A DNA stretch of 64,000 nucleotides from Gemmatimonadota bacterium (lineage in GTDB: Bacteria > Gemmatimonadota > Gemmatimonadetes > Longimicrobiales > Gaopeijiaceae), in assembly GCA_022826005.1 (NCBI GenBank), contig JAJDVT010000063.1, positions 62,001 to 126,000 of the forward strand. Reading direction: 5' to 3'. How positions within the stretch are numbered: the first letter of the stretch is position 1; every line of letters begins with the position of its first letter. Positions 13,983-37,865 of this stretch are shown here, in pieces. The position numbers were made by a program, and so were the translations under genes. Below the pieces are notes generated by a model. It did not search any database. It saw nothing but the letters and a program-made list of their open reading frames with translations, and was not told the origin of the DNA.

Positions 13983-16900
13983 CTAACCGGATCCACCGGG
14001 CGTGCCTGCCGACCGTCGTACCACCTCCAGCCCCTGCAGCGCCCGGTTGTCCCGCGCGTAGTCCAGGGGGGTTCTGCCTTCGTCGTCGAGCGCGGCAAGG
14101 TCGGCGCCGAGGCGCAGAAGCGTGGGAAAAACGGCCGGGTTGTACCGCGCCGCGAGATGAAGGGGGGTGCTGCCCGAGCCGTCGCGGGCGTCCAGGTCCG
14201 CGCCGACGGCGGCCAGTATTTCCAGGACGGCCCGGTTGGGGTTGCGAGACGCCGCTGCGTGAAGTGGAGCGGCCCCGGCATGCGAGCGCGCATGCGGGTC
14301 CACTCCGACATCCAGCAACGCCTGCAGGACGGCGGGGTTGGGATTGCCCGCCGCCGCGACGTGAAGCGCGGTTCTTCCACCGGCACCCCGGACATGCGGA
14401 TCCGCACCGGCTTCCAGAAGGATGGAGATCGCCTCGAGGTTGTCGTTACTCCCGGCGGATTCCAGCAATGGAGTCTGTCCCCCATCCGCACGCGCGTTTG
14501 CGTCCGCTCCGGCACTCAGCAGCGATGCGATCGCGGTTGGGTCGGGGGTCGCACGCGCCGCGTCGTGGAGCGGTGTCATTCCGCTTCGGAAGCCCAGATA
14601 GTTTCCCCTCGTGCGCGCGTTGACGTCCGCGCCCGCATGCACCAGCGCGGCAACCACCCCGGGGTTAGGATTCGCGGTCGCCTCGTGCAGCGGGGTGTCG
14701 TCCCACCTGACGTGGTAGGTGGATCCCGTTGCCCATGCGTTCACCTGCGCTCCCGCTTCCAGCAGCGCGGTCAGGACCGCCGGTTGCGCATTGTGACGGG
14801 CGGCGAGGTGCAGGGGGGAATAGTGTCTGCCGTCGCGCGAGTTGACTTCGGCACCGGCCTCCATGAGTACCGGGATCACCGCGGGGTCGCGGGTCCACTC
14901 AGCCGCCAGGTGCAGTGGTGCGGGGCCTCCGCCCGGGCTCAGGAAAGGATCGCGAGGCTCCTCGCCCCGGGCATTGACGTCGGCGCCCCTCCGGATGCAG
15001 CCGAAGACGATGGCGGCTGTCGCAGCCCGGAAGAAGGCGGGCGTGTTCCATCTCGCGCAGTCGGCGGCATCGGCGGCACGTTCGAACTCCATCCTCATCG
15101 CCGCGGCGCCGCCGAGTTCGACCAGCCGGGCGATGACATCGCTGTTCCCCCTTTCGAGCGCTTCGTGCAGTGGCGTGCGGCCGGTCTCGTCAGCTGCGTC
15201 CAAAGAGGCCCCCGCGTCGACAAGGAACTGGACGACCGGATCCGACCGCGCTGCGTGGTGAAGGGGTGTGCGGCGCGAGTCGTCGCGCGCGTTGACATCC
15301 GCGCCTGCTTCCAGGAGGGCGGCCGCCAGATCGATCCTCCCCCGCCCCGCAACGTCGTGAAGGGGGGTGGTGCCCCGATCCGATCGCGCGTTCACGTCCG
15401 CACCGGCCTCGGCGAGCATTCCGATGAGCGTGGCCGCGAAGTGGTTCGGCCGGTAGGCGTTCACCAGCTGATGCAGGGGCGTGTTGCCGTTCTGGTCCCG
15501 GGCGTTCACGTCGGCGCCATGCTCGATGCAGCCCTGCACGCTTTCGGGCGGGGCGGTGCTGATGAACTCCTCGTCCGGCAACTCGCAAACTCGGCGATCT
15601 CGCACGGTCATCCTGCGGTTGTCCGGCACTTCCCTGTCTGCGCCCAGCTCCATGAGCTTGTCCACCGCCACCGTGTCGCCGTTGTTCCAGGCCAGGTGGA
15701 GGGGAGTCTCTCCCTTCCCGTTGCGGGCATTCACGTCCGCACCCGCGCGCACCAGGGCGGAGACGATCGCCGTATCCGGACGCGGGGCGTCTTCCTGCCG
15801 ATTCGGGCGACGCCGCAAGTACAGAAGGTGCAGGGGCGTGTCACCGTCCTCGTTGCGAGCACCGGGGTCCGCGGCCGCGTCAATCAACAGGGTGACGTTG
15901 TCGTTCTTGCGCGTGCGGACTGCGCCGTGGAGCGGCGTCAGGCCCCGGTCATCCGCGGCATTCACCTCTGCGCCGGCCTCCAGAAGAGCGCCAACGACCG
16001 CCGGGGCGCCGTACTCCGCCGCGACGTCAAGCGCGGACGAGCCGTAGTTGGTCCGCAGATTCACGTCCGCCCCAGCCTCCAGCAGCATCGAGACCGGGGT
16101 GACGTTCTCTCGGAAGCTCGCCAGATACAGTGGAGTCCAGCCGCTGTCGTCTCGCGAGTCGGGATCCACCCCCAGGGCCAGCAGCGTGCGAAGCATCCGC
16201 AGCTGTTCGGGGGATTCATCCACGGTAGTGACCCAATGCAGGACGGTCCCCCGGGCATCGGTCACATTGACGTCGGCTCCAGCTTCCAGCAAGAGCCGAA
16301 CAACGGGCAAGCTGCTCGCCAGGAGCAACGGGGTGGATCCGTTCGCGTTACGCGCCTCCAGCTCCGCACCGGCCTGGAGCAGCAGCGCGACAACCCCGGT
16401 GTCGCCCCGGAGTGCGGCATCATGCAGAGGGGTTGTGCCCTCGTCGTCGCGTGCGTTTGCATTCGCCCCGGCTTCAAGCAGCATCGTCGCGTTGCGGAGG
16501 CTCCCGAGCGACGCGGCGACGTGCAGCGGGGTGTGCCCGGCGTCGTTTCGGGAGTGCGGGTCGGCACCCCGGCTCAGCAGCAGGGCGACAATGGCGGGGT
16601 CCTCCGGCCTGAGGGTCCCGACTCCCCTTCGGGGCCACACCGACCCCCAGTGCAGCGGGGTGTTGCCCCCCTCGTCGGGTGCGTGCAGATCCGAGCCGGA
16701 ATCGAGGCAATCTGCTACGTGTTCGGGAAGAGCGGTTCGGCGAAAGAGCTGTGTGTTCCAGTATTCGCAGTGGGCCGGGTCGGCTGCGCTGCCCCGATCG
16801 TCGCGTGCCTCCGGGTCGGCCCCCGCGGCGAGCAGTTCCCGGATCACGGCACGCTCGTTGTACCATGCCCTGTGAAGCGGTGTGCGCTGGTACGCGTCGC

Positions 16901-17306
16901 GTGCGTTCACGTTCGCGCCGGCGGCTATCAGCGCGGCGATGACCTCGGGAGTCCGGTTCCCCCCCGCGGCATCGTGCAGGGGGGTCCGCTCCGCCCAGTC
17001 CCTCGCGTTCACGTCCGCGCCAGCCGCGAGCAGCGCGGACACGACTCCAATGTCCCCGTCTCGAGCGGACGCCGCGTGCAGGAGGGTCTTGTTGTTGTTG
17101 TCACGAGCGTCGATGTCGGTCCCGCCCCGGAGGCAGGCGTTCACCGTGTCGGCGGTTGCCGTCCGAAGGAACCACGAGAAGCGGCCCTCACTCCAGTCTT
17201 CGCAGTCCGGCGGGCCGTCTCCTGTCAGGATGGTGCGCTGGGCCGTGGCGGGGGTTGCGAGCAGCAGGAGTGCTCCGGCTACGGCAAGTCGACTGAATCT
17301 TCCCAT
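13983..17306 (-). CDS. Giant exported ankyrin-repeat protein 1
   Basis: 1107 aa. The start at 17306 (not the upstream in-frame ATG) has the ribosome-binding site GGAGGG 6 nt before it and gives a clean signal peptide ending ATPATAQ. The rest is nearly continuous ankyrin repeats with the consensus G.TPLH.AA....V...LL.AGADVNARD. Four non-canonical cysteine modules interrupt them near residues 33 (CEDW), 178 (CEYWNT), 572 (CELP) and 749 (CARWNT); each has a second Cys about 20-25 residues on (for example VADCLDSG), suggesting a disulfide per module. The C-terminus has the array-wide ending LRLGADLAALDDEGRTPLDY. Closest relative is its neighbour, protein 2. Ankyrin repeats bind proteins; the partner is unknown. 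Confidence 0.9.
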   Translation of the reverse strand: MGRFSRLAVAGALLLLATPATAQRTILTGDGPPDCEDWSEGRFSWFLRTATADTVNACLRGGTDIDARDNNNKTLLHAASARDGDIGVVSALLAAGADVNARDWAERTPLHDAAGGNRTPEVIAALIAAGANVNARDAYQRTPLHRAWYNERAVIRELLAAGADPEARDDRGSAADPAHCEYWNTQLFRRTALPEHVADCLDSGSDLHAPDEGGNTPLHWGSVWPRRGVGTLRPEDPAIVALLLSRGADPHSRNDAGHTPLHVAASLGSLRNATMLLEAGANANARDDEGTTPLHDAALRGDTGVVALLLQAGAELEARNANGSTPLLLASSLPVVRLLLEAGADVNVTDARGTVLHWVTTVDESPEQLRMLRTLLALGVDPDSRDDSGWTPLYLASFRENVTPVSMLLEAGADVNLRTNYGSSALDVAAEYGAPAVVGALLEAGAEVNAADDRGLTPLHGAVRTRKNDNVTLLIDAAADPGARNEDGDTPLHLLYLRRRPNRQEDAPRPDTAIVSALVRAGADVNARNGKGETPLHLAWNNGDTVAVDKLMELGADREVPDNRRMTVRDRRVCELPDEEFISTAPPESVQGCIEHGADVNARDQNGNTPLHQLVNAYRPNHFAATLIGMLAEAGADVNARSDRGTTPLHDVAGRGRIDLAAALLEAGADVNARDDSRRTPLHHAARSDPVVQFLVDAGASLDAADETGRTPLHEALERGNSDVIARLVELGGAAAMRMEFERAADAADCARWNTPAFFRAATAAIVFGCIRRGADVNARGEEPRDPFLSPGGGPAPLHLAAEWTRDPAVIPVLMEAGAEVNSRDGRHYSPLHLAARHNAQPAVLTALLEAGAQVNAWATGSTYHVRWDDTPLHEATANPNPGVVAALVHAGADVNARTRGNYLGFRSGMTPLHDAARATPDPTAIASLLSAGADANARADGGQTPLLESAGSNDNLEAISILLEAGADPHVRGAGGRTALHVAAAGNPNPAVLQALLDVGVDPHARSHAGAAPLHAAASRNPNRAVLEILAAVGADLDARDGSGSTPLHLAARYNPAVFPTLLRLGADLAALDDEGRTPLDYARDNRALQGLEVVRRSAGTPGGSG

Positions 17307-17354
17307 GAGACCCTCCGCAGGAGCCACGCCTTATGCGGGCGACGATCGATCACT
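17307..17354 (-). promoter_or_regulatory. Conserved 5' leader with hairpin covering the ribosome-binding site (ankyrin gene 1)
   Basis: The leader between element E2 and the ATG is nearly identical to those of ankyrin genes 2 and 6. It can form CTCC-TGC-GGAG, in which GGAG is the Shine-Dalgarno sequence, and an upstream stem CGCC/GGCG. Pairing would hide the ribosome-binding site. No experimental support; the inference is from sequence and conservation. Confidence 0.45.
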
Positions 17355-17391
17355 GTAAGGCAGAGTTTACATTCTGACATGTGTAGTTTAC
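17355..17391 (-). repeat. 37-bp double-dyad element, copy E2
   Basis: Minus strand: GTAAACTACACATGTC, AGAAT, GTAAACTCTGCCTTAC. It begins 3 bp after the stop of ankyrin gene 2 and lies 49 bp before the start of ankyrin gene 1. The first dyad's right half is changed to TGTC; the second dyad is intact. Confidence 0.85.
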
Positions 17392-17394
17392 TTA

Positions 17395-20300
17395 TCAGCG
17401 TTCCAGACGGCCACTGGCCGGGCCGCGGGGAGGACCTCCCGACTGCCGCACGACCTCCAGCCCCTGCAGCGCCCGGTTCTCCCGCGCGTAGTCGAGAGGG
17501 GTCCGGCCCTCGTCGTCGAGGGCGGCAAGGTCGGCGCCGAGGCGCAGAAGGACGGGAAACACAGCCGGATTGTGCCGCGCCGCGAGATGAAGGGGGGTCT
17601 GGCCCGAGTCGTCGCGTGCGTTCAGATCCGACCCGAGGGCGGCCAGGAGCTCCGGGACGGCCCGGTTGGGGTTGCGCTGCGCAGCCTCGTGCAGCGGAGT
17701 GGCCCCGGTCCGCGAGCGCGCCTGCGGGTCCAATCCGGCGTCCAGCAGCGTCTGCAGTACGGAGGGGTTGGGATTGCCCGCCGCCGCGACGTGAAGCGCC
17801 GTTCTTCCGCCGGCACCGCGGGCATGCAGATCCGCGCCGGCTTCCAGAAGTACGGAGATCACCTGGGGGTTGCCGTTACCCCCAGCCGCTTCCAGCAACG
17901 GCGTCTCCCCCACATCCGCCCGCGCGTTTACGTCCGCACCGGCATTCAGCAGCGATGCGAGCGCGGTGGGGTCGGGGGTCGAACGCGCTACGTAGTGGAG
18001 CGGTGTCATGCCGTTCCGGGAACCCAGGTAACGTGCCATGCCACGTGCGTTGACGTCCGCGCCCGCGTGCACCAGCGCGGCAACGATCCCGGGGTTCGGG
18101 TTCCGGGTCGCCTGGTGCAGCGGGGTTTCGTCCCACCTGACGCTTCGCCAAGACCCCGTTGCCCATGCGTTCACCTCCGCCCCCGCTTCCAGCAGCGCGG
18201 TGAGGACCGCCGGATCGGGGTTGCGGCGGGCGGCGAGGTGCAGCGGGGAATAGTGGCTGCCGTCGCGCGCGCTGACTTCGGCACCTGCCTCCACGAGAAC
18301 CGGGATCACTCCGGGGTCGCGGGTCCACTCCGCCGCCAGATGCAGCGGTGCGGGGCCCCCGCCCGGCCTCAGGGAAATGTCGCGAGACTCCTCCCTGGCA
18401 TTGACGTCGGCACCCCTCCGGATGCAGCCAAAGACGATGGCAGCCGTCGCGGCCCGGAAGAAGGCGCGCGAGTTCCATCTCGCGCAGTCCGCGGCATCGG
18501 CGGCATCGGCGGCATGTTCCATCTGCAACCTCAGCGCCGCGTCGCCGCCGAGTTCGACCAGCCGGGCGATGACGCCGCCGTTCCCCCCTTCCAGCGCTTC
18601 ATGCAGTGGCGTGCGGTCGGTCTCGTCAGCCGCGTCCCAGGAGGCCCCCGCGTCCACAAGGAGCTGGGCGACCGGATCCGACCACCGCGATGCGTAGTGA
18701 AGGGGTGTGCGGCGCGAGTCGTCGCGTGCGTTGACGTCCGCGCCTGCTTCCAAGAGGGCGGCCGCCAGATCGACCCTGCTCCGCCACGCAGCGTCGTGGA
18801 GGGGGGTGGTGCCCCGATCCGACCGCGCGTTCAAGTCCGCTCCCGCTTCCGCGAGCATCTCGATGAGCGTGGCCGCGAAGCGGTTCACCCCGGCCCTGGG
18901 GGAGCCGTTCACCAGGTGATGCAGGGGCGTGTTGCCGTCGCGGTCCCGGGCGTTCACGTCGGCGCCATGCTCGATGCAGCCTCGCACGCTCTCGGGCGGG
19001 GCGGTGCTGATGAACTCCTCGTCCGGAAACTCGCAACTCCGGCGATCTCGCACGGTCATCCCGCGGTTGTCCGGAACTTCCCTGTCTGCGCCCAGCTCGA
19101 TGAGCTTGTCCACCGCCACCTTGTCGCCGTTGTTCCAGGCCAGGTGCAGGAGAGTCTCTCCCTTTCCGTTGCGGGCGTTCACGTCCGCACCGGCGCGCAC
19201 CAGGGCGGTGACGATCGCCGTGTCCGGACGCGGGGCGTCTTCCAGCCGACCCCGGCGGCGTGCCAGGTGCAGGGGCGTGTCACGGTCCTGGTTGCGAGCA
19301 CCGGGATCCGCGCCCGCTTCCAGGAGCAGGATCACGTTGTCGGGATTGCGGCCGAAAACTGCTTCGTGCAGCGGAGTGTCACCCGACCGCGTCCGTGCAT
19401 GCAGGTCTTCCCCGGCCTCCAGCAGAGCGGCAACGACCGCCGGGGCGCCGGATGCCGCCGCATTGTGAAGCGCGGACACGCCATAATTGGCCTGCTGGTT
19501 CACCTGCGCGCCGGCCTCCAGCAGCATCAAGACCGGGGTGACGTCCTCGCCAAAACTCGCCAGGTGCAAGGGGGTCCGGCCCCTGTCGTCCCTGGAATCC
19601 ACATCCGCACCAAGATCCAGTAGTGTGCCAAGCAACCGCTGCCGTTCGGGGGATACGTCAAAACTGAGGACAACGTGCAGGATACTCCCCTGCGCACTGG
19701 TCACACTCATGTCCGCTCCCGCCTCCAGCAACAGGCGGACCGACGGCACGCGGTCGGCCTGGAGCACCGGCACGCTGCCGGCCACAAGCAAGGGAGTCGA
19801 GCCGTTGGAGTCACGCGCCTCCACCTCCGCGCCGGCTTGGAGCAGCAGCGCGACAATCCCGGCGTCGCCCCGGAAAGCGGCTTCATGCAGTGGGGTGGAG
19901 CCGTCGTTGTCGCGAGCGTTCACGTCGGCCCCGGCCTGGAGGAGCATCGTCGCGCTGCGGAGGCTCCCGAGCGATGCTGCCAAGTGCAACGGGGTGTGCC
20001 CGGCGTCGTTGCGAGCGTGCGGGTCGGCGCCCCGGCCCAGCAGCATGGCCACGATGTCGAGGTACTCCGGTCCGAGGGTGAGGGCCCACCTCTCCCACGG
20101 GAACCGCTCCGACCCCCAGAGGTGCAGCGGGGTGTTGCCTTCTCCGTCGCGAGCATGCAGATCCACACCGGAATCGAGGCAGTTCGCCACGTCTTCGGGA
20201 AGAGCCGTCCGGCGGAAGCGCGAAGTGTTCCAGTACTCGCAGTGCATCGGGTCGGCCACTCCGCCCCGATGGTCGCGCGCCTCCCCGTCGGCCCCCGCGG

Positions 20301-20778
20301 CGAGCAGTTCCCGGATGACGGCACGCTCATTGTTCCATGCCAGGTGAAGCGGGGTACGCTGGTAGGCGTCGCGTGCGTTCACGTTCGCGCCGGCCGCGAT
20401 CAGCGCGGCGACGACCTCTGGGTCCCGGTTCCCCCACGCGGCATCGTGCAGGGGGGTCCGCGCCGCCCAGTCCCCCGCGTTGACGTCCGCGCCGGCGGCG
20501 AGCAGCGCGGACATGACTTCAAGGTCCCCACCGCCCGCCGACGCCGCGTGCAGGAGGGTCTTGTTGTTGTCGTCGCGCGCGTCGATGTCGGTTCCTTCGC
20601 GAAGGCAGGCGTTCACCGAGTCGGCCGTCGCCGTCCGAAGGAACCCCCCGAAGCGGCCCTCGCTCCAGTCCTCGCAGTCGGGCGGGCCGTCTCCCGTCAG
20701 GATGGCGCGCTGGGCGGAGGCAGGCACTACGAGCAGCAGGAGAATTCCGGCTAGGGCAAGTCGTCCGAATCTTCTCAT
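17395..20778 (-). CDS. Giant exported ankyrin-repeat protein 2
   Basis: 1127 aa, the closest paralogue of protein 1 over its full length (same signal peptide pattern, same order of repeats, many identical blocks such as TAPPESV.GCIEHGADVNARD). The ATG at 20778 follows a GGAGGG ribosome-binding site; the signal peptide ends VVPASAQ. Cysteine modules sit near residues 33 (CEDW), 179 (CEYWNT), 581 (CEFP) and 764 (CARWNS). The C-terminus ends PRGPASGRLER, shared with protein 3 and nearly with protein 7 but not with protein 1. That points to duplications or exchanges that had the gene junction as a boundary. Confidence 0.9.
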   Translation of the reverse strand: MRRFGRLALAGILLLLVVPASAQRAILTGDGPPDCEDWSEGRFGGFLRTATADSVNACLREGTDIDARDDNNKTLLHAASAGGGDLEVMSALLAAGADVNAGDWAARTPLHDAAWGNRDPEVVAALIAAGANVNARDAYQRTPLHLAWNNERAVIRELLAAGADGEARDHRGGVADPMHCEYWNTSRFRRTALPEDVANCLDSGVDLHARDGEGNTPLHLWGSERFPWERWALTLGPEYLDIVAMLLGRGADPHARNDAGHTPLHLAASLGSLRSATMLLQAGADVNARDNDGSTPLHEAAFRGDAGIVALLLQAGAEVEARDSNGSTPLLVAGSVPVLQADRVPSVRLLLEAGADMSVTSAQGSILHVVLSFDVSPERQRLLGTLLDLGADVDSRDDRGRTPLHLASFGEDVTPVLMLLEAGAQVNQQANYGVSALHNAAASGAPAVVAALLEAGEDLHARTRSGDTPLHEAVFGRNPDNVILLLEAGADPGARNQDRDTPLHLARRRGRLEDAPRPDTAIVTALVRAGADVNARNGKGETLLHLAWNNGDKVAVDKLIELGADREVPDNRGMTVRDRRSCEFPDEEFISTAPPESVRGCIEHGADVNARDRDGNTPLHHLVNGSPRAGVNRFAATLIEMLAEAGADLNARSDRGTTPLHDAAWRSRVDLAAALLEAGADVNARDDSRRTPLHYASRWSDPVAQLLVDAGASWDAADETDRTPLHEALEGGNGGVIARLVELGGDAALRLQMEHAADAADAADCARWNSRAFFRAATAAIVFGCIRRGADVNAREESRDISLRPGGGPAPLHLAAEWTRDPGVIPVLVEAGAEVSARDGSHYSPLHLAARRNPDPAVLTALLEAGAEVNAWATGSWRSVRWDETPLHQATRNPNPGIVAALVHAGADVNARGMARYLGSRNGMTPLHYVARSTPDPTALASLLNAGADVNARADVGETPLLEAAGGNGNPQVISVLLEAGADLHARGAGGRTALHVAAAGNPNPSVLQTLLDAGLDPQARSRTGATPLHEAAQRNPNRAVPELLAALGSDLNARDDSGQTPLHLAARHNPAVFPVLLRLGADLAALDDEGRTPLDYARENRALQGLEVVRQSGGPPRGPASGRLER

Positions 20779-20825
20779 GAGACCCTCCACAGGAGCCACG
20801 CCTTTACGAGCGAAGGCCGAGCGCT
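20779..20825 (-). promoter_or_regulatory. Conserved 5' leader with hairpin covering the ribosome-binding site (ankyrin gene 2)
   Basis: Same leader as in front of ankyrin genes 1 and 6. The hairpin here is CTCC-TGT-GGAG; only the loop base differs while both arms are kept. A second possible stem is CCTT/AAGG just upstream. Confidence 0.45.
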
Positions 20826-20862
20826 GTAAAGCGGAGCTTACATTCTGACATGTGTAGTTTAC
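20826..20862 (-). repeat. 37-bp double-dyad element, copy E3
   Basis: Minus strand: GTAAACTACACATGTC, AGAAT, GTAAGCTCCGCTTTAC. It begins 3 bp after the stop of ankyrin gene 3 and lies 48 bp before the start of ankyrin gene 2. Confidence 0.85.
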
Positions 20863-20865
20863 CTA

Positions 20866-23800
20866 TCAGCGTTCCAGACGGCCACTTGCCGGCCCGCGGG
20901 GAGGATCTTCCGAGCTCCTTACAACCTCCAGCCCCTGCAGCGCCTGGTTGTCGCGCGCATAGTCCAGCGGGGTCCGGCCTTCGTTGTCGAGGGCGGCGAG
21001 ATCCGCGCCGAGGCGCAGCAGGGTGGGAAACGCGGCCGGGTTGCTTCGCGCCGCGAGGTGGAGGGGGGTGCGGCCCAGGTCGTCGCGTGCGTTCAGGTCC
21101 GCGCCGAGGGCGACCAGCAACTCCAGGATGGGCCGGTTGCGGTTCCCCGACGCGCCGTCGTGCAGCGGGGTGGACCCTGATCCGGTTCGCGCGTTCATGT
21201 CCGCGCCTGCGTCCAGCAACGCCTGCAGAACCGCCGGGTTCGAATTCCCTGCCGCCGCAAAGTGGAGCGCGGTCCTGTCGCGCGCGCCACGGGCATGCAG
21301 ATCGGCGCCGGCCTCGAGAAGGGTCACGACTACCTCGGGATTGCCATTGGCTCTGGCGGCCTCCAGCAACGGCATCTGACCCCCGTCCGCACGTACGTTC
21401 ACATCCGCTCCGGCCCCCAGCAGCAGTGCAATGTTGGATGGGTCGCGAGCGCGACCCGCGGCGTAGTGGAGTGGTGTCATGCCGCTCCTGTCGTCCGGGT
21501 CACGCGCCGAGCGCGCGTTGACGTCCGCTCCCGCCCGCACCAGGGCAACCGCGATCTCGGGGTTCCGGTTCGCCATCGCTTCGTGCAGCGGGGTGTAGTC
21601 CCACCCGTAGTCGATGTGGAATCCGGTTGCCCAGGCGTTTACATTCGCTCCCGCCTCCAGGAGCTTGCTTAGGACCTCCAGGTCAGGGTTGTGCCGGGCG
21701 GCGAGGTGCAATGGGGCATTGTCGCGTTCGTCGTGCGCGTTCACATCGGCCCCGGCTTCGAGCAGCACGGAGATCACCCCGGGATCGCGGGTCCACTGCG
21801 CCGCCATGTGCAGAGGTGCGGTCCCCCCGCCGGGGCGCGTCATGATTGACCCTGGCACTCGGACATTGACATCGGCTCCGTCGCGAATGCAGATCGCCAC
21901 CAGGGTAGCCGTCGCGACGCGGAAGAAGTCGGGGGTGTTCCATCTGTCGCAGTTCGCCGCATCGGTGGCATGGTCGATTCTGGCTCGGGCCACCGAATCA
22001 CCCGAGAGCTCAACGAACCGTTGTACGACCGCCTGGTTCTCGGTTAGCAGGGCTGCTGCCTGCAATGGAGTGTGGCCAGTGTCGTCAACCGCATGCACCG
22101 AAGCGCCCGCGTCGACAAGGAGCGATACTAGCGAGACCGGGCCCCACCGGGCGTGGTGCAGCGGTGTGCCGCCCGTCGAATCGCGAGCGTGCACATCCGC
22201 GCCCGCTTCCAGAAGCGCTGCCACCAGGTCTGGCCTCCTCCAGGCTGCAGCATCGTGGAGGGGCGTGGCACCCCGGTCGGATCGCGCGTTCACGTCCGCC
22301 CCTGCCTCGGCAAGTATCCCGATGAGCCTGGTCGCGAAATGCGTCCGCGAGCCATTCACAAGGTGATGCAGCGGGGTGTTGCCGTCATGGTCCGTGGCGT
22401 TCACGTCGGCGCCATGCTCGATGCAGCCGCGCACGCTCTCGGGCGGAGCGGCCTTGATGAAATCCGCGTCCGGCCAGTCACACAACTGGCGATCACCCGG
22501 TACGTCCCCAAGGTTGTCCGGCATTTCAGGATCAGCACCCAGCTCCAGCAGCTTGTCCACCACCGGAGTGTTTCCCGTGTTCCAGGCCACATGCAGCGGT
22601 GTCTCGCCCTTGTCGTTGCGGGCATCGATGTCCGCGCCGGCACCGACCAGCGCCGAGACGATCACCGTGTCGAGACGCAACGAGGTCTCCCGCCAGTCCG
22701 GGCGGCGTGGCCGAGAGGCAGCGAGGTGCAATGGCGTGTCGCCGTTTTCGTTGGCGGCGCCCGGATCTGCACCCGTCTCCAGAAGCAGAACCATGTTTTC
22801 CTGCCTGTCCCGGCGGACCGCCCCGTGCAGCGGTGTGTTGCCGCGGCGGTCCGCGATGGCCATTTCCGCCCCAGCCTCAAGCAGGGCGGCAACAACTGCG
22901 GTGCCGCCATGCTCTGCCGCCACGCCGAGTGGAGACGGGTCATATTCGGTCCGCCGGTTCACATCCGCGCCGGCGTTGAGAAGAATCGAGATCCGGGCAA
23001 CGTCTTCGGCAAAGCTCGCCCGGTACAAGGGCGTCCAGCCCAAGCCGTCCCCCGAGTTCGGATCGGCCCCCAGGTCCAGCAACGTGCGGAGCATAAGGAC
23101 CGACGCAGAGTCATCACCCATGGCGATAACGCGATGCAGGACGTTCTCCCGGGCCCCGTACGAGTTCACGTCGGCCCCCGCATTCAGCAGCGTCTGAAGA
23201 ACGGCTATGCTACCCCCCATGTGGAGCGGGGTGGTCCCGTTGGCGTCACGCACCTCCGGCTCAGCGCCGGATTGGAGCAGCAGCGTGACCATGCCGGGGT
23301 GCCCGTGCCGGGCGGCGCGATGCAGCGGGGCCTCGCCGTTGTTGTCACGTGCGCCGACCTCCGCCCCGGCCTCCAGCAACATCGTTGCGATGGGAACGCT
23401 CCCGAGCGAAGCTGCGACGTGCAGCGGGGTGTGCCCGGCGCCGTTTCGGGCGCGGGCGTCGGCGCCTGCGTCCAGGAGCATGGCAACGATCTCGGGATCT
23501 TCCGGTTTCGGGGGTTCCAACCTTCCCCGTCCCCACGCCGACGCCCAGTGCAGCGGAGTGTTGCCCTCTTCGTCACGGGCACGCGGGTCCGCGCCGGACT
23601 CGAGGCAACGCGCCACCTCCTCGGGAAGAGCCGTCCGGCGGAAGAGCCCCGTGTTCCAGTTCGCGCAGCTCGTCGGGTCGGCTACCCTGCCTCGATCGTC
23701 ACGGGCGCCCCGGTCGGCCCCTGCGGCAAGCAGTGTGCGGATCACGGCAACATTCCTGTTGGACCAGGCCATGTGCAGAGGGGTGCGCTCGTAGGCGTCA

Positions 23801-24273: not shown

Positions 24274-24287
24274 TCGTTGCTCCGAAG

Positions 24288-27585: not shown

Positions 27586-27599
27586 ATATTCGTAACGGT

Positions 27600-30500: not shown

Positions 30501-31034
30501 GATCCGAGCCAGGGCGGGGTTCGGCCGGAACCTGGCGCGATGCAGCGGCGTTTGGCCGTACGCATCCCGCACATTCACATCCGCTCCGGCCCGCAGCAGC
30601 AGCTCGACGATCTCTGGACTCCCGTTGACGATCGCGTGATGCAGCGGCGTGCGGTCCGCCCAGTCCCGGACCCCAACCTCCGCTCCGGCCCGCAGCAGCA
30701 CGGTGATGACTGCGGGATCGCTGCTCTGATTGGCTGCAACGAGGAGCGGCGTGTCGCCCCCGAGGCTCCGCCCGTTGACGTCCAGGCCGGCTTCGACGCA
30801 CTCCGCGACTTCTTCGGCCGTGGCAAAGTAGAAGTAGCCGCCGGCCATGTAGGTCGTTGGGTTGTCCCAGTCGTTGCAGGCGGGCCCGGGAAGGTCCGTG
30901 AATCCGCGGAGCTGGGCGGAGAGCGGGGGCGGGGCCAGCCAGGGGCCCCATGTGCGGGCGTCCAGGCACGGAAGCGTGGCCAGCAGGAAGAAGTGCAGGA
31001 TGCTGCCTGCGGCGGAGGGGTTCGTCCGTTTCAT
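27600..31034 (-). CDS. Giant exported ankyrin-repeat protein 5
   Basis: 1144 aa, the most diverged member. Signal sequence SILHFFLLATLPCLDA with a likely cleavage after PPLSAQ; GGAGG ribosome-binding site before the ATG. Cysteine modules: about residues 52 (CNDW, with an insert), 198 (CEEWNT), 606 (CDWSEWTI) and 795 (CDRWNTGVFF). The C-terminal block is LALGADTQAVDEEGRTPLDH and the protein ends in LLRER, unlike the others. Upstream, 31035-31170 (136 bp) contains no 37-bp element or leader hairpin, and I see nothing else in it. Confidence 0.9.
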   Translation of the reverse strand: MKRTNPSAAGSILHFFLLATLPCLDARTWGPWLAPPPLSAQLRGFTDLPGPACNDWDNPTTYMAGGYFYFATAEEVAECVEAGLDVNGRSLGGDTPLLVAANQSSDPAVITVLLRAGAEVGVRDWADRTPLHHAIVNGSPEIVELLLRAGADVNVRDAYGQTPLHRARFRPNPALARILLGSGADRTARDDRGNIADPARCEEWNTPLFGRAALPEDVRRCLDSGADVNARDEEGDTPLHQVARGWEVGTRRFQGLPENAEVVEMLLASGADVNARNEAGQTPLHFAARAGSVPVAALLIEAGAVVSASDARAATPLHHAAASEDPGIVPLLLRAGAELEAQDTRGATPVAWAANRLAQGYGNRASFEALLGAGAEMDAADLGTALNHAASWLAGDPDAALAIVSRLLELGANPNARGTLGPISQETPLHGASRGTSEALVVALLEAGAEIGAVDRLGRTALHVAAAYSRNQAVAGALLAAGADVNARDLNAETPLHRAANEKAAVNVAVLLEAGADVNARATNGDTPLHRGSWGRGRIPRHADTAIVSALVEAGADVGAVNREGDTPLDLARKRGNIALAERLVQLGAVADPVGGSGEPPATAPYCDWSEWTIVSLPLDMVVTCLEAGADPAAPDERGRTPLHAVAVAIPGPMAPIRLEDPARLTAVARALVEAGADVDARDSAGSTPLHRAVASLLDDPAGTELLVALGADVNARDDEGRTPLHAAAGSLDDLPSIASLLVGAGADPNARDNLGRTPLHLAVERDNPGLAAVLLARGAEPVAFDDTGQAADPRTCDRWNTGVFFRVADAGGVAGCIDRGADVNGRPGEGRVRWRTLFYNPTPLHLAARFTTDVSVISLLIESGADLDARDDNGDTPLHMAARYNPDPAVATALLRAGAEVDARAAGFGVDAGWNYTALHRAAATPNLAVAAALLEAGANVNDRGYGGGTPLHSAAESGNAAMIRLLLEAGADVNARADRGMTPLHWAARSNDDPAVITVLLEAGAQVNVWGRTTAISASRQYRTPLHSAALRNWNPEIVEALVGAGAEVNARDRSGGTPLHVAAGDNRNPEIVEALVAAGAEVNARDHGGQTPLHIAARRNNNVFLALLALGADTQAVDEEGRTPLDHARQNPLLRELLRER

Positions 31035-31170: not shown

Positions 31171-34100
31171 CTACCGCACCACCTCCAGCCCCTGCAGCGC
31201 CCGGTTGTCCCGCGCGTAGTCCAGGGGGGTTCTGCCGTCCGCGTCGAGCGCCGTCAGGTCGGCGCCGAGGCGGAGCAGCACGGGGAATACGGCGGGGTTG
31301 GACCTCGCGGCAACATGCAGCGGGGTTTGCCCGGCGTCGTTCCTCGCATTCGGATCGGCACCGAGGCCGACCAGCGTCTCCAGGACGGCGGGGTTGGGGT
31401 TGCCGGATGCAGCCAGATGCAGGGGCGTGGCACCGGATTCGGGCATACGTGCACGGATGTCCGCCCCCGATCGCACGAGAAGCGTGACCACGTCGGGATT
31501 TGAATTCCCTTGGGCCGCAGAGTGCAGGGGTGTTCTGTCCATCCGTTCGACCGGGAACCCGCCGCTCGTTGCGAGGTTCACACCCGACCCATTCACGTCC
31601 GCTCCCGCGTCGAGCAGCGCCTCCAGAACGGCGGGGTTGGCGTTGCGCGCGGCGGCTTCGTGGAGCGGGGTTCTACCTCCACTCCTGCGTGCGTTCACCT
31701 TTGCCCCACCCTCCACCAGCACGTTGATCATCGCCGGATCGGCGTTCCACCCGGCAGCCTGCTGGAGCGGGGTGCCGTTGTGGCCGAGCGCATTCGGGTT
31801 CGCGCCCGCCGCGAGCAATGCCGCCGCGACCCCGGGATCCGGGTTGGTGGACGCCGCGTGCAGCGGTGTGAAGTCCCAACCCCAGTCAACTCCGAAGCCG
31901 GTCGCCCACGCATTCGCCTCCGCGCCCGCTTTCAGGAGGACGTCCATGACAGCGGCCGTGCCGTACCGGGCGGCATGGTGCAGGGGATTGTTGCCGTCCC
32001 GGTCCACGGCATGGACATCCGCACCGGCCTCCAGGCACCGGCGGACGAGAGCCGGCGACGCGGCGATGGCAAAGCCTCTCGTGTTCCAGTCTTCGCAATC
32101 GGCCGTCAACGAGGCTTCGCGGCGCGTTGGCAGCCCCGCGGAATCCGCGCCCAGCTGGAGGAGCGTTGCTCGAAGTCTGTCCCCGTACCGGTTCGCCACC
32201 ACGGTCAGAGCGGTCTGGCCCAGGGCGTTGCGGGCATCGACCTCCGCGCCCGCCTCAACGAGAAGGACGGCGGTTTCAGGAGCGCGGTACGAACCCGAGG
32301 CCGCCACGAGATGAAGGGGCGTGTTGCCCCGCTCGTCGCGCGCGTTGACATCGGCACCCGCCTCGATGCACCCCGCAACGCTTTCGGGCGGTGCAGGCCG
32401 GCCAAACAGTGAAGTGGACGCGAAAAACGCGCTGTCCGGCCATTCGCAGACGGCGAGGCGCGGGGTCCTGCCCCGGTTGTCCAGCGCTTCGGGATCGGCG
32501 CCCAGGTCCAGCAACCGGTCTCGCACCAGCGGGACGGACGCCTCGCCAGCGATGTGCAACGGCGTCGCGCCCGCCCCGTTCCTGGCGTTCGGATCGGCAC
32601 CGGCGTCCGCCAGAGCGGTGACCATTGCGGTGTCGAAGCGGACGGAACGCCGACTCTCGCCGTACCATCTCAACGGGCGGGCAACCCTGTGCAGCGGCGT
32701 GTCTCCGTCTGCGTCTCTGGCCCGGACATTCGCGCCGAAGCGCAGGAGCGCGGCCACGCCGGCATGCTTCTTCGCCGATACCGCGCGGTGCAGCGGGGTC
32801 TCGCCCCCCGCATTCGCCGCGTTCGGGTCGGCTCCGGCCTCCAGAAGAATCGTGACAACGGCGTTTTCGGCAGGCGCGGCCGGATGAGGACTTGCCGGAT
32901 CGATACGCGGAACCACCCGGAGCGGCCAGTCCGCCGCCAGGTGCAGAGGTGTGAGGCCGCTGGAGTCTCGGGCGTTCACGTCGGCTCCCGCCTCGATCAG
33001 AGACGCAAGGAGGAGCTCGTTGTTCGACCTGCTCGCCAGATGCAGCGGGGTCTCGCCGGCGTCGTTGAGGGCGTTCGGATCGGCTCCGGATTCGATGAGC
33101 ATTCCGAAGACCTCTTGCGCCGATGGGTCATCAGCGTCCCCTCGGGTGACGGCCCAATGCAAGGCGGTCGTGCCATAGCGGCCCCCTCGGGCGTTCACGT
33201 CCGCGCCTGCCTCCAGCAAAGCCTCAACGAGTGCGGGATTCCCCGGCCCTCCCCAGTCGTGAGAAACGACCTGAAGCAGAGGAGTCGAGTTTTGGTTGTC
33301 GCGGGCGTTGACGTCCGAGCCGGCTTCGAGCAGACGGACGACCACGGCGAGGCTATCGCTCCACGCCGCCTGGTGCAGGGGGATCTGGCCGCTGGCAGCG
33401 CGCGCCCCTGGATCCGCGCCGGCCTGCAACAACAGGGTGACAACGGCGGGGTTGCCGCTGGCGGCCGCATGGTGGAGTGGGGACCGGCCCCTGGCGTCAC
33501 GGGCGTTCACGTCGGCGCCGGCTTTGAGGAGCGCGCCGGCGACGGCAGGGTTGCCGCTGGCGGCTGCGTAGTGGAGGGGGGTCTTGCGGTCGCCCGGGCG
33601 GAAGGAGGGCCGCACGCGTCCGAGAGGCCGGGGAACACGAACATCATCGCGCGGATCCACCTCGGCGCCGGCCTCCAGGAGCAATGCGGCGACGGCGGCG
33701 TCCGGGTTCGTCGCTGCGTAGTGCAACGGGGTCTGACCTTGGCCGCTGCGCACATTCACATCCGCGCCCGCCTCGACGAGGAGCGTCAGGCTCCCGGCGT
33801 CGCCCTGCTGTGCGGCGTGGTGAAGTGGGGTGTTGCCGTCATCGTCCGTTGCGTGCAGGTCCGACCCGGACTCGATGCAATCCGCCACCGCGCTCGTTGA
33901 TGCCATGCGGGCGAAGACGGGCGTGTTCCAGTTGCGGCAGTGCGTGGGGTCGGCGAGGTCGCCGCGATCGTTCCGCGCGAGCGGATCCGCTCCCGTCTCC
34001 AGCAGTGCGTGGGCGACGGCGGGATCGGCATTGTCCCAGGCCGCGTGGAGCGGGGTGTTCCAGGCGTCGTCCTGTGCACTCACCTCGGCGCCGGCGTCCA

Positions 34101-34365
34101 CGAGTGCGTGGATGGCGGCGGGATCCTCGATGTAGCGGGCCGCCAGGTGCAGGGGGGTGCGGCCGCGGTCGTCCAGGGTGTTGGCGTCCGCCCCTTCGTC
34201 GAGGCAGGCAGCGACGTCGTTGGCCCCGGCGGACTCGAAGAAGGCCTCAAGCTGGCCCGATCGCCAGTCCTCACAATCGGCCAGGACCGCATCGGTGGAC
34301 CCGGGAGCCCGGCAGGCAACGAACAGGAGGGCGGCGGCTCCGGCAAATCGACTGAACCTTCTCAT
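31171..34365 (-). CDS. Giant exported ankyrin-repeat protein 6 (possible lipoprotein)
   Basis: 1064 aa. The N-terminus MRRFSRFAGAAALLFVAC has a weak lipobox (FVAC), so it may be lipid-anchored, unlike its neighbours, which end in an SPase I site. Cysteine modules: about residues 31 (CEDW), 143 (CRNWNT), 640 (CEWPDSAFF, with a 7-residue insert before the second Cys) and 757 (CEDWNTRGF). It shares the 5' leader and element with genes 1 and 2 although its coding sequence is clearly more distant, so leader and gene have different histories. It ends with the standard LRLGADLTALDADGRTPLDY block. Confidence 0.9.
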   Translation of the reverse strand: MRRFSRFAGAAALLFVACRAPGSTDAVLADCEDWRSGQLEAFFESAGANDVAACLDEGADANTLDDRGRTPLHLAARYIEDPAAIHALVDAGAEVSAQDDAWNTPLHAAWDNADPAVAHALLETGADPLARNDRGDLADPTHCRNWNTPVFARMASTSAVADCIESGSDLHATDDDGNTPLHHAAQQGDAGSLTLLVEAGADVNVRSGQGQTPLHYAATNPDAAVAALLLEAGAEVDPRDDVRVPRPLGRVRPSFRPGDRKTPLHYAAASGNPAVAGALLKAGADVNARDARGRSPLHHAAASGNPAVVTLLLQAGADPGARAASGQIPLHQAAWSDSLAVVVRLLEAGSDVNARDNQNSTPLLQVVSHDWGGPGNPALVEALLEAGADVNARGGRYGTTALHWAVTRGDADDPSAQEVFGMLIESGADPNALNDAGETPLHLASRSNNELLLASLIEAGADVNARDSSGLTPLHLAADWPLRVVPRIDPASPHPAAPAENAVVTILLEAGADPNAANAGGETPLHRAVSAKKHAGVAALLRFGANVRARDADGDTPLHRVARPLRWYGESRRSVRFDTAMVTALADAGADPNARNGAGATPLHIAGEASVPLVRDRLLDLGADPEALDNRGRTPRLAVCEWPDSAFFASTSLFGRPAPPESVAGCIEAGADVNARDERGNTPLHLVAASGSYRAPETAVLLVEAGAEVDARNALGQTALTVVANRYGDRLRATLLQLGADSAGLPTRREASLTADCEDWNTRGFAIAASPALVRRCLEAGADVHAVDRDGNNPLHHAARYGTAAVMDVLLKAGAEANAWATGFGVDWGWDFTPLHAASTNPDPGVAAALLAAGANPNALGHNGTPLQQAAGWNADPAMINVLVEGGAKVNARRSGGRTPLHEAAARNANPAVLEALLDAGADVNGSGVNLATSGGFPVERMDRTPLHSAAQGNSNPDVVTLLVRSGADIRARMPESGATPLHLAASGNPNPAVLETLVGLGADPNARNDAGQTPLHVAARSNPAVFPVLLRLGADLTALDADGRTPLDYARDNRALQGLEVVR

Positions 34366-34413
34366 TGAGACCCTCCGCAGGAGCCACGCCTTTACGGGCG
34401 AAGGTCGAGCACT
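34366..34413 (-). promoter_or_regulatory. Conserved 5' leader with hairpin covering the ribosome-binding site (ankyrin gene 6)
   Basis: CTCC-TGC-GGAG (34373-34383) contains the Shine-Dalgarno GGAG; a second stem CGCC/GGCG lies at 34387-34400. Nearly identical to the leaders at 17307 and 20779. Confidence 0.45.
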
Positions 34414-34450
34414 GTAAAGCGGAGTTTACATTCTGACATGTGCAGTTTAC
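34414..34450 (-). repeat. 37-bp double-dyad element, copy E5
   Basis: Minus strand: GTAAACTGCACATGTC, AGAAT, GTAAACTCCGCTTTAC. It begins 4 bp after the stop of ankyrin gene 7 and lies 49 bp before the start of ankyrin gene 6. Confidence 0.85.
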
Positions 34451-34454
34451 CTAT

Positions 34455-37400
34455 TCAGCGTTGCAGACGGCCACTGGCCGGGCCGCGGGGAAGGTCTTCC
34501 GACCGCCGCACCACCTCCAGCATCTGCAGGGCCTCGTTCTCCCGCGCGTAGTCGATCGGAGTCCTGCCGTCCTCGTCGAGTGCGTCCGGATCGGCGCCGG
34601 CTTCCAGCAGAAACAGGAACACGGCCGGATTCCTGCGGGCGGAAGCGTGGAGAGGAGTGACGCCGGAAGACAGGCGGGAGTTCAGGTCCGCGCCGGCCCG
34701 CAGGAGGACGTCGATGACCGCCGGATTGCGGTTGGCCACAGCAGCGAGCGACAGGGGGGTCCCGGAATCCGCGCCGGTTGCATGGACATCCGCTCCGGCC
34801 TCGATCAGCATGGTGAAGATGATGGGTCCGGCGTTTCCCACGGCGGCCACGTGCAACGGCGTCATCTCGCCGTGCCAGCCGCTGGCCTGCGCGATCGACC
34901 CCCAAACGTTGACCTCCGCCCCGGCTGCGAGGAGGGCGCCGAGAACGGCGGGGTTGGTGTTTCGCTCTGCCGCCTCGTGCAGCGGCGTCCTGCCGTGTGC
35001 TCCGCGGGCGTTCACATCCGCCCCGGCGTCGAGCAGCAGGTTGACGACTTCGGGATTCGGGTTGCCTTCCGCGGCCCAGTGAAGGGGAGTCCTGCCGCCC
35101 CAGCCCTGTGCGTGCAGATCGGCCCCGGCCTCCAGCAGCGCGGTCGCGACGGCGGGATTCCCGTTCCCGCCCGCGGCCTGGTGCAGCGGCGTGTGGTTCC
35201 ACCCGAAGTCGGTGCGGAATCCCTCCGCCCACGCCTCCAGTTCGGCTCCCGCCTCCATCAGCGCCGCGATCATCGCCGGATCCTCGTTCATGCCGGCGGC
35301 GCGGTGCAGTGGCGAATAGCCGTCCGCGTCCCGTGCGTTGACCTCCGCCCCCGCCTCCACCAGCAAGCGGACGACGGCGGGATCCCGGGACCAGGCCGCA
35401 GCGAAGTGGAGAGGGGTGGAGCCGGACCGCAGGTTGAAGCCACCCGGTTGCGAGACGGCGTTCACATCCGCGCCGCCTTCGATGCAGGCCGCCACGACCT
35501 CCGGGGCCGCCACGTGGAAGAAGACCCCGGTGTTCCATCTCTCGCAGCTCTCGGGATCGGCCACGCGCGCGGAATCGTCCTGCAACGCCGGGTCCGCACC
35601 CAGTTCCAGGAGACGGGCCGCCGTGGCGGGATTGTCCTGCCGCACTGCCCAATGCAGCGGAGTCCGGCCCTGGCCGTCGGCTGCATCCGGATCCGCTCCC
35701 GCTTCCACCAGAACCGCAACCAGGGACGGATTCTCGAAGATTGCACGGGAAGCGTAGTGCAGGGGCGTGAAGCCTCCGTCGGTACGCGCGTCGACATCCG
35801 CGCCCGCCTCCAGAAGCGCGGCCACGATGCCCGGGCGGTCTTGCAGTCCACCGATGGCGGCGTGCAGGGGAGTCAGGCCCTGGTTGTCCCGCACGTTGAT
35901 ATCCGCACCAGCTTCGAGAAACGCCGCCACGGCCGCGGCGGCGGGGTACTGGTCCGGCCGCAGATCCGATGCCAGACCGTGGAGGGGCGTTCGGCCAAGG
36001 CGGTCGCGTGCGTGGACAGCCGCGCCGCCCTCGAGACAGGCTTCAACGCTCTCCAGCGGAGCGTCGCGGAAGAAACCGTACTCCGTCCAGTTGCAAACCA
36101 TCGGACGGGGCGTCCTTCCCAGATCGTCCTCGGCGTCGGGGTCGGCTCCCCGCTCCAGCAGTCGGTTCACGACCGGTTCGTGGCCGCTCCGCGTGGCGAT
36201 GTGCAGGGGCGTCTCACCCCGGTCGTTGCGGGCGTCGACATCCGCGCCGCGGCCGACCAGGGCGTTGACGATGACCGTGTCGGAAAAGGGGTCCGCCGCA
36301 GGCCGGTAGCCCCACTCCGGGGGCCAGACCGCCACTTCGTGCAGGGGTGTGTCGCCCGTTTCATTCGTTGCGTTCACATCCGCGCCTGCCTCCAGCAGCA
36401 GCGCCACATGCGCGGGCTTCTTCGCCGCGGCCGCCCGGTGCAGAGGCGTCTCGCCACGGTTATCGCGCGCGCTCACCTCCGCCCCGCCCCGCAGCAGTGC
36501 CGCGATGACCGGAGGCTCCCCGAAGAGGGCCGCATCATGCAGGGGCGACTGTCCGACGCGGTTCCTCGCGTTGACGTCGAGGCCGGCCCCCAGCAGCACG
36601 GCAACGACTTCGGGGTCGCCACCGGAGGTTGCAGCCCCATGCAGCAGGGTCTCAGCTGCCCTGCTTCGCACCGTGGGATCGGCCCCGAGCTCCAGGAGCC
36701 TCTCGACGATGCCGGCATCCTGCAGAGCGAAGCCCAGCGCGGTCACGCCGTACTCGGACCGGGCGTTGACGTCGGCACCGGCCTCCACGAGGGCCTCGAA
36801 TACGGTGAGGCTCGCGAATCCCCCCTCGGCCGCCGCGAGAAAGGGGGTGTTCCCTCTTGCATCGCGGGAGTGCACGTCCGCCCCGGCCTCCAGCAGGAGC
36901 GCCACGGTTTCGGGCCCCTCCACCTGCGCTGCCCGGTGAAGCGGGGTGGCGTCCCGGTCGTTGCGGGCGTCGACATCGGCGCCGGCGTCCAGCAGCAAGG
37001 CCACGATGACGGGATTCTCGACCCGGGGCCTGCCCGGGATCCGGAGTCCGCGTGTGTTGTCCGGAAGCGCCCCCGCCACATGATGCAGCGGAGTGTCTCC
37101 GCCGGGATCCCGCAGGTTCACGTCCGCCCCCGCTCCCAGAAGGAGGGTGACAACGGTCGGATCCTCGCTCGCCGGCGCGCCGACCGTGCCACCCGCCGAC
37201 GCGCTGGTCGCCAGCAACAGCGGGGAGTTGCCGCGCTCGTTGACGGCGTTCGGATCGGCTCCGGCCTCCAGGCACCCCGCCACGGCCTCGGCGGTGGCGG
37301 TGCGCGCGAACCGCCTGGTGTTCCAATGGTCGCAGCTCATCGGATCGGCGACCTGGCCCCGGTCGTTGCGGGCCGTGCGGTCGGCTCCCAGCTCCATCAG

Positions 37401-37865
37401 CGTGTGGGGCACGGCAGGGTTCCGGTTGCTCCAGGAGGCGTGCAGCGGGGTGTTCCCTTCCCCGTCCCGCGCTTCCGGATCCGCTCCCGCCGCGACCAGC
37501 TCCGTGACGACCACGGGGTCGCGGTACAGGGCGGCGGCCGTATGCAGCGGGGTCTCGCCGTCCATGTCCCGGGCGCTCAGATCCGCTCCCGCCGCGATCA
37601 GCACGCTGATGACCGCGGGATCCGGACTGTACTGGGTGGCCCGGTGCAGCGGGGTCCCGCCGCGGTCACCGAACAACGGATCACGCTGACCGCGATAGTC
37701 GTTCACATCCGCCCCGGCCTCCAGGCAGGCCGTCACCATCTCCACCGTGGCCGACATGAAGAACTCCGAGGTGTTCCAGTCGTCGCAGCTGTCCTGGGCG
37801 GTCGCGGAGGTGGCAAGGAGAAGGAGGAGTCCGATGAGTGTCAGGTGTGCCTTACATTGTGTCAT
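34455..37865 (-). CDS. Giant exported ankyrin-repeat protein 7
   Basis: 1136 aa. The ATG at 37865 follows GGGGAGG with 9-nt spacing and opens a signal peptide (LTLIGLLLLLATSATAQ); the upstream in-frame extension is not signal-like. Cysteine modules: about residues 26 (CDDWNTSEFF), 177 (CDHWNT), 590 (CNWTEYGFF) and 773 (CERWNTGVFF). It resembles protein 4 most. It ends LPRGPASGRLQR, almost the ending of proteins 2 and 3. It is the first gene of the array in the direction of transcription; a degenerate 37-bp element overlaps its start codon. Confidence 0.9.
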   Translation of the reverse strand: MTQCKAHLTLIGLLLLLATSATAQDSCDDWNTSEFFMSATVEMVTACLEAGADVNDYRGQRDPLFGDRGGTPLHRATQYSPDPAVISVLIAAGADLSARDMDGETPLHTAAALYRDPVVVTELVAAGADPEARDGEGNTPLHASWSNRNPAVPHTLMELGADRTARNDRGQVADPMSCDHWNTRRFARTATAEAVAGCLEAGADPNAVNERGNSPLLLATSASAGGTVGAPASEDPTVVTLLLGAGADVNLRDPGGDTPLHHVAGALPDNTRGLRIPGRPRVENPVIVALLLDAGADVDARNDRDATPLHRAAQVEGPETVALLLEAGADVHSRDARGNTPFLAAAEGGFASLTVFEALVEAGADVNARSEYGVTALGFALQDAGIVERLLELGADPTVRSRAAETLLHGAATSGGDPEVVAVLLGAGLDVNARNRVGQSPLHDAALFGEPPVIAALLRGGAEVSARDNRGETPLHRAAAAKKPAHVALLLEAGADVNATNETGDTPLHEVAVWPPEWGYRPAADPFSDTVIVNALVGRGADVDARNDRGETPLHIATRSGHEPVVNRLLERGADPDAEDDLGRTPRPMVCNWTEYGFFRDAPLESVEACLEGGAAVHARDRLGRTPLHGLASDLRPDQYPAAAAVAAFLEAGADINVRDNQGLTPLHAAIGGLQDRPGIVAALLEAGADVDARTDGGFTPLHYASRAIFENPSLVAVLVEAGADPDAADGQGRTPLHWAVRQDNPATAARLLELGADPALQDDSARVADPESCERWNTGVFFHVAAPEVVAACIEGGADVNAVSQPGGFNLRSGSTPLHFAAAWSRDPAVVRLLVEAGAEVNARDADGYSPLHRAAGMNEDPAMIAALMEAGAELEAWAEGFRTDFGWNHTPLHQAAGGNGNPAVATALLEAGADLHAQGWGGRTPLHWAAEGNPNPEVVNLLLDAGADVNARGAHGRTPLHEAAERNTNPAVLGALLAAGAEVNVWGSIAQASGWHGEMTPLHVAAVGNAGPIIFTMLIEAGADVHATGADSGTPLSLAAVANRNPAVIDVLLRAGADLNSRLSSGVTPLHASARRNPAVFLFLLEAGADPDALDEDGRTPIDYARENEALQMLEVVRRSEDLPRGPASGRLQR

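What the first reader, a model, noticed from the sequence alone, without database searches (positions are those of the whole stretch)
13983..37865. Tandem array of seven giant exported ankyrin-repeat genes
Seven consecutive minus-strand genes of about 1060-1140 codons, each with an export signal, are nearly all ankyrin repeats and clearly paralogous. They fill 24 kb with few interruptions. Large ankyrin proteins are common as single genes; such a long array of exported ones at one locus is unusual. Possible roles are recognition of other cells or proteins, surface adhesion, immunity to secreted toxins, or a diversifying binding repertoire.
Basis: partly seen in the sequence, partly recalled or inferred. 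Interest (0 to 1): 0.8.

Follow-up and report, generated by a model that had tools for sequence, protein, structure and literature searches.

The report
Disulfide-capped exported ankyrin gene array
A bacterium of the phylum Gemmatimonadota carries seven back-to-back genes for very long exported binding proteins, each built as four ankyrin modules apparently pinned by one disulfide apiece, and related species keep a different number and choice of these genes at the same chromosomal site, as expected of a fast-changing set of binding proteins whose targets are still unknown.

Summary
Seven intact minus-strand genes (13983-37865) encode 1064-1144-residue proteins made almost entirely of ankyrin repeats, most with clear Sec signal peptides. 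(1) Each protein is four modules, each opened by a special first repeat, ADPxxCxxW[NG]TxxFFxxA(x4)VxxC[LI]xAGADxNA. All 56 cysteines counted in the seven mature proteins (8 each) lie in these 28 caps, implying four disulfide-pinned solenoids. (2) The family is lineage-specific: caps occur in 39 of 395 Gemmatimonadota genomes (4 of 138 genera), strongly expanded only in this genus. (3) Gene content at the same site turns over: 7 genes here, 2 plus an internally deleted one in a near relative, 1 of a distant lineage in another whose flanking receptor is 97% identical, none beside the receptor in a fourth. Ankyrin genes evolve at dN/dS 0.33-0.41 against 0.08-0.15 for neighbours. Change is spread over exposed positions, not beta-turns, and no class exceeds 1. 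Some gene junctions are 86-92% identical while the genes beside them are about 60%, so recombination at junctions is likely. Partner, final location and habitat are not shown. New variant of a known kind.

The parts
34455..37865 (-). ank gene A1 (first in transcription order); caps at 37725-37787, 37272-37334, 36036-36095, 35484-35546
31171..34365 (-). ank gene A2; caps at 34204-34275, 33877-33939, 32368-32448, 32035-32097; orthologue in G020 (84% aa)
27600..31034 (-). ank gene A3; caps at 30798-30878, 30372-30434, 29160-29216, 28584-28646; lineage of the single G008 copy
24288..27524 (-). ank gene A4; caps at 27375-27437, 26949-27011, 25836-25895, 25290-25352; internally deleted counterpart in G020
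20866..24273 (-). ank gene A5; caps at 24034-24105, 23605-23667, 22423-22482, 21889-21951
17395..20778 (-). ank gene A6; caps at 20605-20676, 20179-20241, 18976-19035, 18424-18486; structure predicted
13983..17306 (-). ank gene A7; caps at 17133-17204, 16707-16769, 15528-15587, 14997-15059; 79% aa identical to A6
34355..34555 (-). A1|A2 junction island (3' tail of A1 and leader of A2), 86-92% identical to the A5|A6 and A6|A7 junctions; element GTAAACTnnACATGTCA at 34434-34450
20766..20966 (-). A5|A6 junction island; element at 20846-20862
17295..17495 (-). A6|A7 junction island; element at 17375-17391
27569..27585 (-). same element upstream of A4
37938..38777 (-). upstream flank: 279-aa carbon-nitrogen hydrolase (nitrilase superfamily), conserved flank in G020, G008, G005
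10708..13713 (-). downstream flank: TonB-dependent receptor with CarboxypepD_reg-like domain, conserved
9304..10680 (-). downstream flank: SusD/RagB-like protein

Best explanation
The array is one local set of a lineage-specific, expanded family of exported binding scaffolds. Each protein is made in the cytoplasm, exported by Sec, and folds in an oxidising compartment into four consecutive ankyrin solenoids. The first repeat of each solenoid is a modified cap whose two cysteines (one just before helix 1, one replacing a core leucine of helix 2) form a disulfide that pins the open end. The long concave surfaces bind other proteins. Whole genes are gained, lost, internally deleted and exchanged by homologous recombination, helped by near-identical junctions between genes, so each species carries its own set at a fixed site. 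The most likely use is binding proteins of other cells, a eukaryotic host or grazers first of all, as described for other symbiont ankyrin proteins. Shown: gene structure, four-module cysteine pattern, gene turnover at the site, faster protein evolution, junction islands, broken copies in relatives. Inferred: the disulfides, protein binding, recombination as the cause of the islands. Speculative: the identity of the partner and passage across the outer membrane.
For: Four caps and exactly eight mature cysteines in all seven proteins, none elsewhere; genus-wide, in four-cap genes, 423 of 468 cysteines after the first cap are in cap pairs, most of the rest being one CC motif of a second subfamily. 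Module spacing is conserved between paralogues and species. VKOR next to a DsbA-like gene in this genome. Predicted fold: continuous helix pairs, pLDDT 79, best PDB matches ankyrin-B/R; in all four caps the first cysteine lies at or before helix 1 and the second in helix 2. Locus turnover with conserved flanks. Ank dN/dS 0.33-0.41 against 0.08-0.15 in flanking genes at similar dS. Old lineages shared across species plus recent A5/A6/A7 duplicates. Junction islands. Frameshifted copies in relatives. Restricted distribution. Literature: ankyrin proteins of sponge symbionts change phagocytosis when expressed in E. coli, and sponge Gemmatimonadota carry more ankyrin genes than seawater ones (PMC8163846; PMC9868349).
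Against: No partner, expression or localisation data. Habitat of this genome is not known: the only named relative is 'Gemmatimonadetes bacterium isolate jk18x9bins.40'. No surface anchor recognised, and no type II secretin above the curated cut-off, so the proteins could stay in the periplasm. No position class has dN/dS above 1, so positive selection for new specificities is not demonstrated; weaker constraint would also fit.
Confidence: 0.55

Rival explanations
1. Periplasmic scaffold or envelope-protection proteins: the giants stay in the periplasm, where they bind and organise or protect envelope proteins, and copy number changes neutrally.
For: SPase I-type signals without anchors; no type II secretin over the cut-off; neighbours are outer-membrane receptor genes; disulfide chemistry available.
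Against: A housekeeping scaffold should be kept in relatives; two genomes of the genus show no caps and others have a single gene; rapid change of surface residues.
Confidence: 0.22
2. Homogeneous polyimmunity locus: a tandem set of exported immunity proteins that neutralise incoming toxins in the periplasm.
For: Polyimmunity loci are tandem paralogue arrays that vary in number between strains, and ankyrin immunity proteins (Imm-Ank) are described (PMC3482391). The array has the same genomic logic.
Against: No toxin or toxin-delivery gene among the window and related-array ORFs examined; proteins are about 1100 residues with four modules and exported, unlike typical small immunity proteins (own knowledge); extended polyimmunity loci were reported in that paper only from other phyla.
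Confidence: 0.1
3. Relaxed, near-neutral expansion: duplicates accumulate and decay with little function beyond one ancestral role.
For: dN/dS around 0.35 with no class above 1; broken and truncated copies in relatives.
Against: All seven window copies are intact, all keep eight cap cysteines and conserved cores (core dN/dS 0.19) although most pairs are near saturation at synonymous sites.
Confidence: 0.13

Closest known systems
Eukaryotic-like ankyrin-repeat proteins of sponge and other symbionts (e.g. those tested by Nguyen, Liu and Thomas 2014, cited in PMC8163846 and PMC9868349)
   Same: Bacterial ankyrin proteins expanded in particular lineages, thought to act on eukaryotic cells
   Different: Here four cysteine-capped modules, about 1100 residues, in a tandem array with gene turnover; habitat and effect on eukaryotic cells unknown
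Dot/Icm ankyrin effectors of Legionella (AnkY and others)
   Same: Ankyrin repeats; NCBIfam models match through repeats
   Different: All effector-model scores far below the curated cut-offs; here Sec signals and cysteine caps
Wolbachia phage WO ankyrin proteins
   Same: Long bacterial/phage ankyrin proteins
   Different: Only 24-34% identity through generic repeats; no phage genes among the window ORFs examined
Polyimmunity loci (PMC3482391)
   Same: Tandem paralogue array of binding proteins, variable in number between relatives
   Different: No toxin genes seen; exported giant proteins
Ankyrin-R/B membrane-binding domain and tankyrase ankyrin clusters
   Same: Long ankyrin solenoid; several repeat clusters in one chain
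   Different: Cytosolic eukaryotic proteins (own knowledge) without the cysteine caps

Membership tests
Ankyrin-repeat superfamily (Pfam Ank clan) | 33-residue helix-turn-helix repeats with G-x-TPLH and GADVNA motifs | tested here: met
Eukaryotic-like ankyrin proteins of symbionts | N-terminal export signal | tested here: met
   Read by eye: clear in five of seven, weaker in A2 and A3; no predictor available
Eukaryotic-like ankyrin proteins of symbionts | Organism lives in or on a eukaryotic host | not testable with these tools
   Genome unnamed; only relative named is a MAG without source information
Eukaryotic-like ankyrin proteins of symbionts | Alters eukaryotic cell behaviour such as phagocytosis | not testable with these tools
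   needs experiment
Type IV-secreted ankyrin effectors | Match over curated effector model cut-off | tested here: not met
   AnkY 318 bits against cut-off 600
Homogeneous polyimmunity locus | Tandem paralogues varying in number between close relatives | tested here: met
Homogeneous polyimmunity locus | Association with toxins or known immunity families | tested here: not met
   none found among ORFs examined around this and related arrays
Diversifying recognition repertoire (positive selection at contact positions) | dN/dS above 1 or excess change at beta-turn positions | tested here: not met
   beta-turn 0.41, inner helix 0.60, convex 0.52, core 0.19
Phage-borne ankyrins (WO phage, ankyphage) | Phage context or close phage homologue | tested here: not met
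   only distant generic matches

The most novel reading that the evidence does not exclude
A bacterial exported recognition repertoire: disulfide-stapled ankyrin cassettes kept at fixed chromosomal sites and reshuffled by recombination between near-identical gene junctions, giving each lineage its own set of long-surface binders for foreign (host, predator or competitor) proteins.
Probability: 0.25. Interest if true: 0.8.

Novelty: new variant of a known kind. Interest (0 to 1): 0.55.

Why it matters
Ankyrin proteins of uncultured bacteria are usually just counted as 'eukaryotic-like'. Here a defined, testable family emerges: exported ankyrin proteins with a recognisable cysteine cap, a fixed four-module plan and a site with conserved flanks where gene content turns over. 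The cap motif makes them countable in any genome, suggests how ankyrin solenoids are stabilised outside the cytoplasm, and offers natural scaffolds for binder design. If the partners prove to be host proteins, the arrays would be a handle on how uncultured Gemmatimonadota live with eukaryotes.

Tried and rejected
Phage origin (only distant WO-phage and other generic ankyrins). Beta-turn diversification (not concentrated there). Wholesale gene conversion inside the array (synonymous divergence uniformly high for most pairs; only junctions are alike). Functional coupling to the CN-hydrolase or TonB receptor: both occur away from ank arrays in other genomes, so they look like bystanders; the 584-aa CN ORF is really a 279-aa gene. 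A first cap HMM with flanking repeats overcalled ordinary repeats and was replaced by a cysteine-pair pattern and a 39-column cap model. A viral-contig scan with the cap alignment could not run (no conserved stretch). Attempts to learn the habitat or genus name from the literature failed; the guess of a sponge-associated genus is unverified. A single-sequence fold of one part added little.

Full report
Observation. The window is contig C3, 62001-126000, of a 4.85 Mb, 143-contig genome. Seven uninterrupted minus-strand ORFs fill 13983-37922. Codon composition supports the minus frame, and the plus-strand giant ORFs are mirror artefacts. Pfam and a repeat HMM confirm ankyrin repeats throughout. 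Gaps between the ORFs are 14-136 bases, and 269 before the receptor gene. Signals: A1 and A4-A7 end in A-x-A/Q; A3 is weaker; A2 may be a lipoprotein.

Anatomy. Every protein is four modules. Each module starts with a modified repeat whose consensus is ADPxxCxxWxTxxFFxxAxxxxVxxCLxAGADxNA, with C, C and G invariant and W, F and A at 90% or more. Each mature protein has exactly eight cysteines, and all 56 sit in the 28 caps. Cap positions are colinear in the seven paralogues, roughly 150, 400 and 185 residues apart with about 340 residues after the last, except a shortened module 1 in A2. Many long ankyrin genes of sister species have the same plan; some have six caps. A second subfamily, on C14/C121 of this genome and in relatives, adds a CC motif. 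Of 468 cysteines after the first cap in four-cap genes, 423 are in cap pairs. The genome has VKOR beside a DsbA-like protein on C76, so disulfide formation is plausible.

Structure. AlphaFold2 on A6 with eight relatives gives a continuous series of helix pairs with mean pLDDT 79 and pTM 0.48, so the local fold is reliable but the overall arrangement of modules is not. Foldseek matches are ankyrin-B/R, NOMPC and DARPins. In all four caps the first cysteine lies at or just before helix 1 and the second inside helix 2, where normal repeats have a core leucine.

Distribution. Strong matches to A6 occur in 19 of 40 genomes in the relatives search, all of the same genus. The cap model finds 39 of 395 Gemmatimonadota genomes and 4 of 138 genera, three in one family and one in another family of the class. 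The one named relative, G020, is the Gemmatimonadetes bacterium MAG jk18x9bins.40, identified by its contig length of 130831 bases.

The site in relatives. In G020 the same flanks enclose an internally deleted A4-like gene, an A6/A7-like gene and an A2-like gene, in an order that differs from the window. In G008, where the receptor is 97% identical in protein, a single copy lies between the CN-hydrolase and the receptor; it groups with A3 and is about as distant as the paralogues are from one another. G005 has at least two copies on split contigs; G009 has the receptor (88%) with no ankyrin gene within the fetched 20 kb. Frameshifted or split copies occur in G003, G018, G021 (a single-contig genome) and in the C14 array. 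The tree places A1, A2, A3, A4 and the A5-A7 group in separate old lineages, several of them shared with other species. This is birth and death with gene shuffling, not one-to-one inheritance. All genomes here may be draft assemblies, and collapsed or broken repeats could affect single counts; G021 and the contiguous G008, G020 and window contigs argue against this as the general cause.

Evolution. Between species or recent duplicates the window-type ankyrin genes have dN/dS 0.33-0.41 (0.25-0.35 in two C14-type pairs) against 0.08-0.15 for the flanking receptor and SusD-like genes at similar or higher dS. By repeat position: core 0.19, beta-turn 0.41, convex helix 0.52, inner-helix positions 13/14 0.60 and position 10 0.68. 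So surface residues change freely while the fold is kept, with a slight excess on the inner helix and none above 1. The beta-turn prediction fails.

Junctions. The 3' tail and leader between A1|A2, A5|A6 and A6|A7 are about 86-92% identical over some 200 bases, while the genes on either side of A1|A2 fall to about 60% against the others. This points to recombination at junctions; it is inference. The leaders carry GTAAACTnnACATGTCA, with 35 sites in the genome at up to 2 mismatches against none for the reversed control. It also lies at the CN-hydrolase start. It may be a promoter or operator; its nature is open.

Function. The best reading is exported protein-binding scaffolds whose set differs between species. 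Sponge Gemmatimonadota were reported to carry more ankyrin genes than seawater ones (0.25% against 0.09% of genes), and repeat proteins from sponge symbionts let E. coli evade phagocytosis (PMC8163846). Whether this organism is host-associated is not known. The same paper notes that few sponge symbionts encode classical secretion systems, which fits the lack of a type II secretin over the cut-off here. Polyimmunity loci share the array logic (PMC3482391), but no toxin genes were found.

Verdict. A real, well-defined lineage-specific family; a new variant of a known kind. No description of the cysteine cap was found in the papers searched, which cover open-access texts only. The novel reading, an exported shuffling repertoire, is not excluded.

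Noticed in passing
window 17375-17391, 20846-20862, 27569-27585, 34434-34450, 38772-38809; about 30 further sites in the genome (L101-L120): Dispersed element GTAAAsTnnACATGwCA followed by ATGTAAnnTnnnCTTTACA, repeated half-sites about 10 bases apart, 35 genome sites at up to 2 mismatches and 0 for the control pattern. Looks like a promoter or operator shared by many genes.
   Followed up: partly
L065, L072, L073, L076, L077 (arrays of G007, G018, G021): The related ankyrin arrays there are interleaved with three kinds of proteins, some weakly similar to 6-bladed beta-propellers (DUF5128/NHL), which are about 76-88% conserved between the species.
   Followed up: partly
window 47889-49130 and 49218-50648; L065:2314-3855; L077:4810-6369: An AAA ATPase similar to MAD3 of the methylation-associated defence system (NCBIfam 282 bits, below cut-off 420) sits near ankyrin arrays in this genome, G007 and G021, without the rest of that system being seen.
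   Followed up: no
L013:3172-9034 and 9047-15038, L014, L015, L016: Other ankyrin genes of this genome are third in three-gene sets: PSD-type DUF1587/1592/1588/1585 protein, DUF1552 protein, ankyrin protein often ending in NNNNCVSC-like tails. One set was checked with Pfam; the others by size and pattern.
   Followed up: partly
L011:4-4047 (G000:C121): A 1348-aa protein with bacterial Ig-like and leucine-rich repeats lies near the second ankyrin array.
   Followed up: no
window 62420-63862: A SelA (selenocysteine synthase) gene, suggesting that this genome may use selenocysteine.
   Followed up: no
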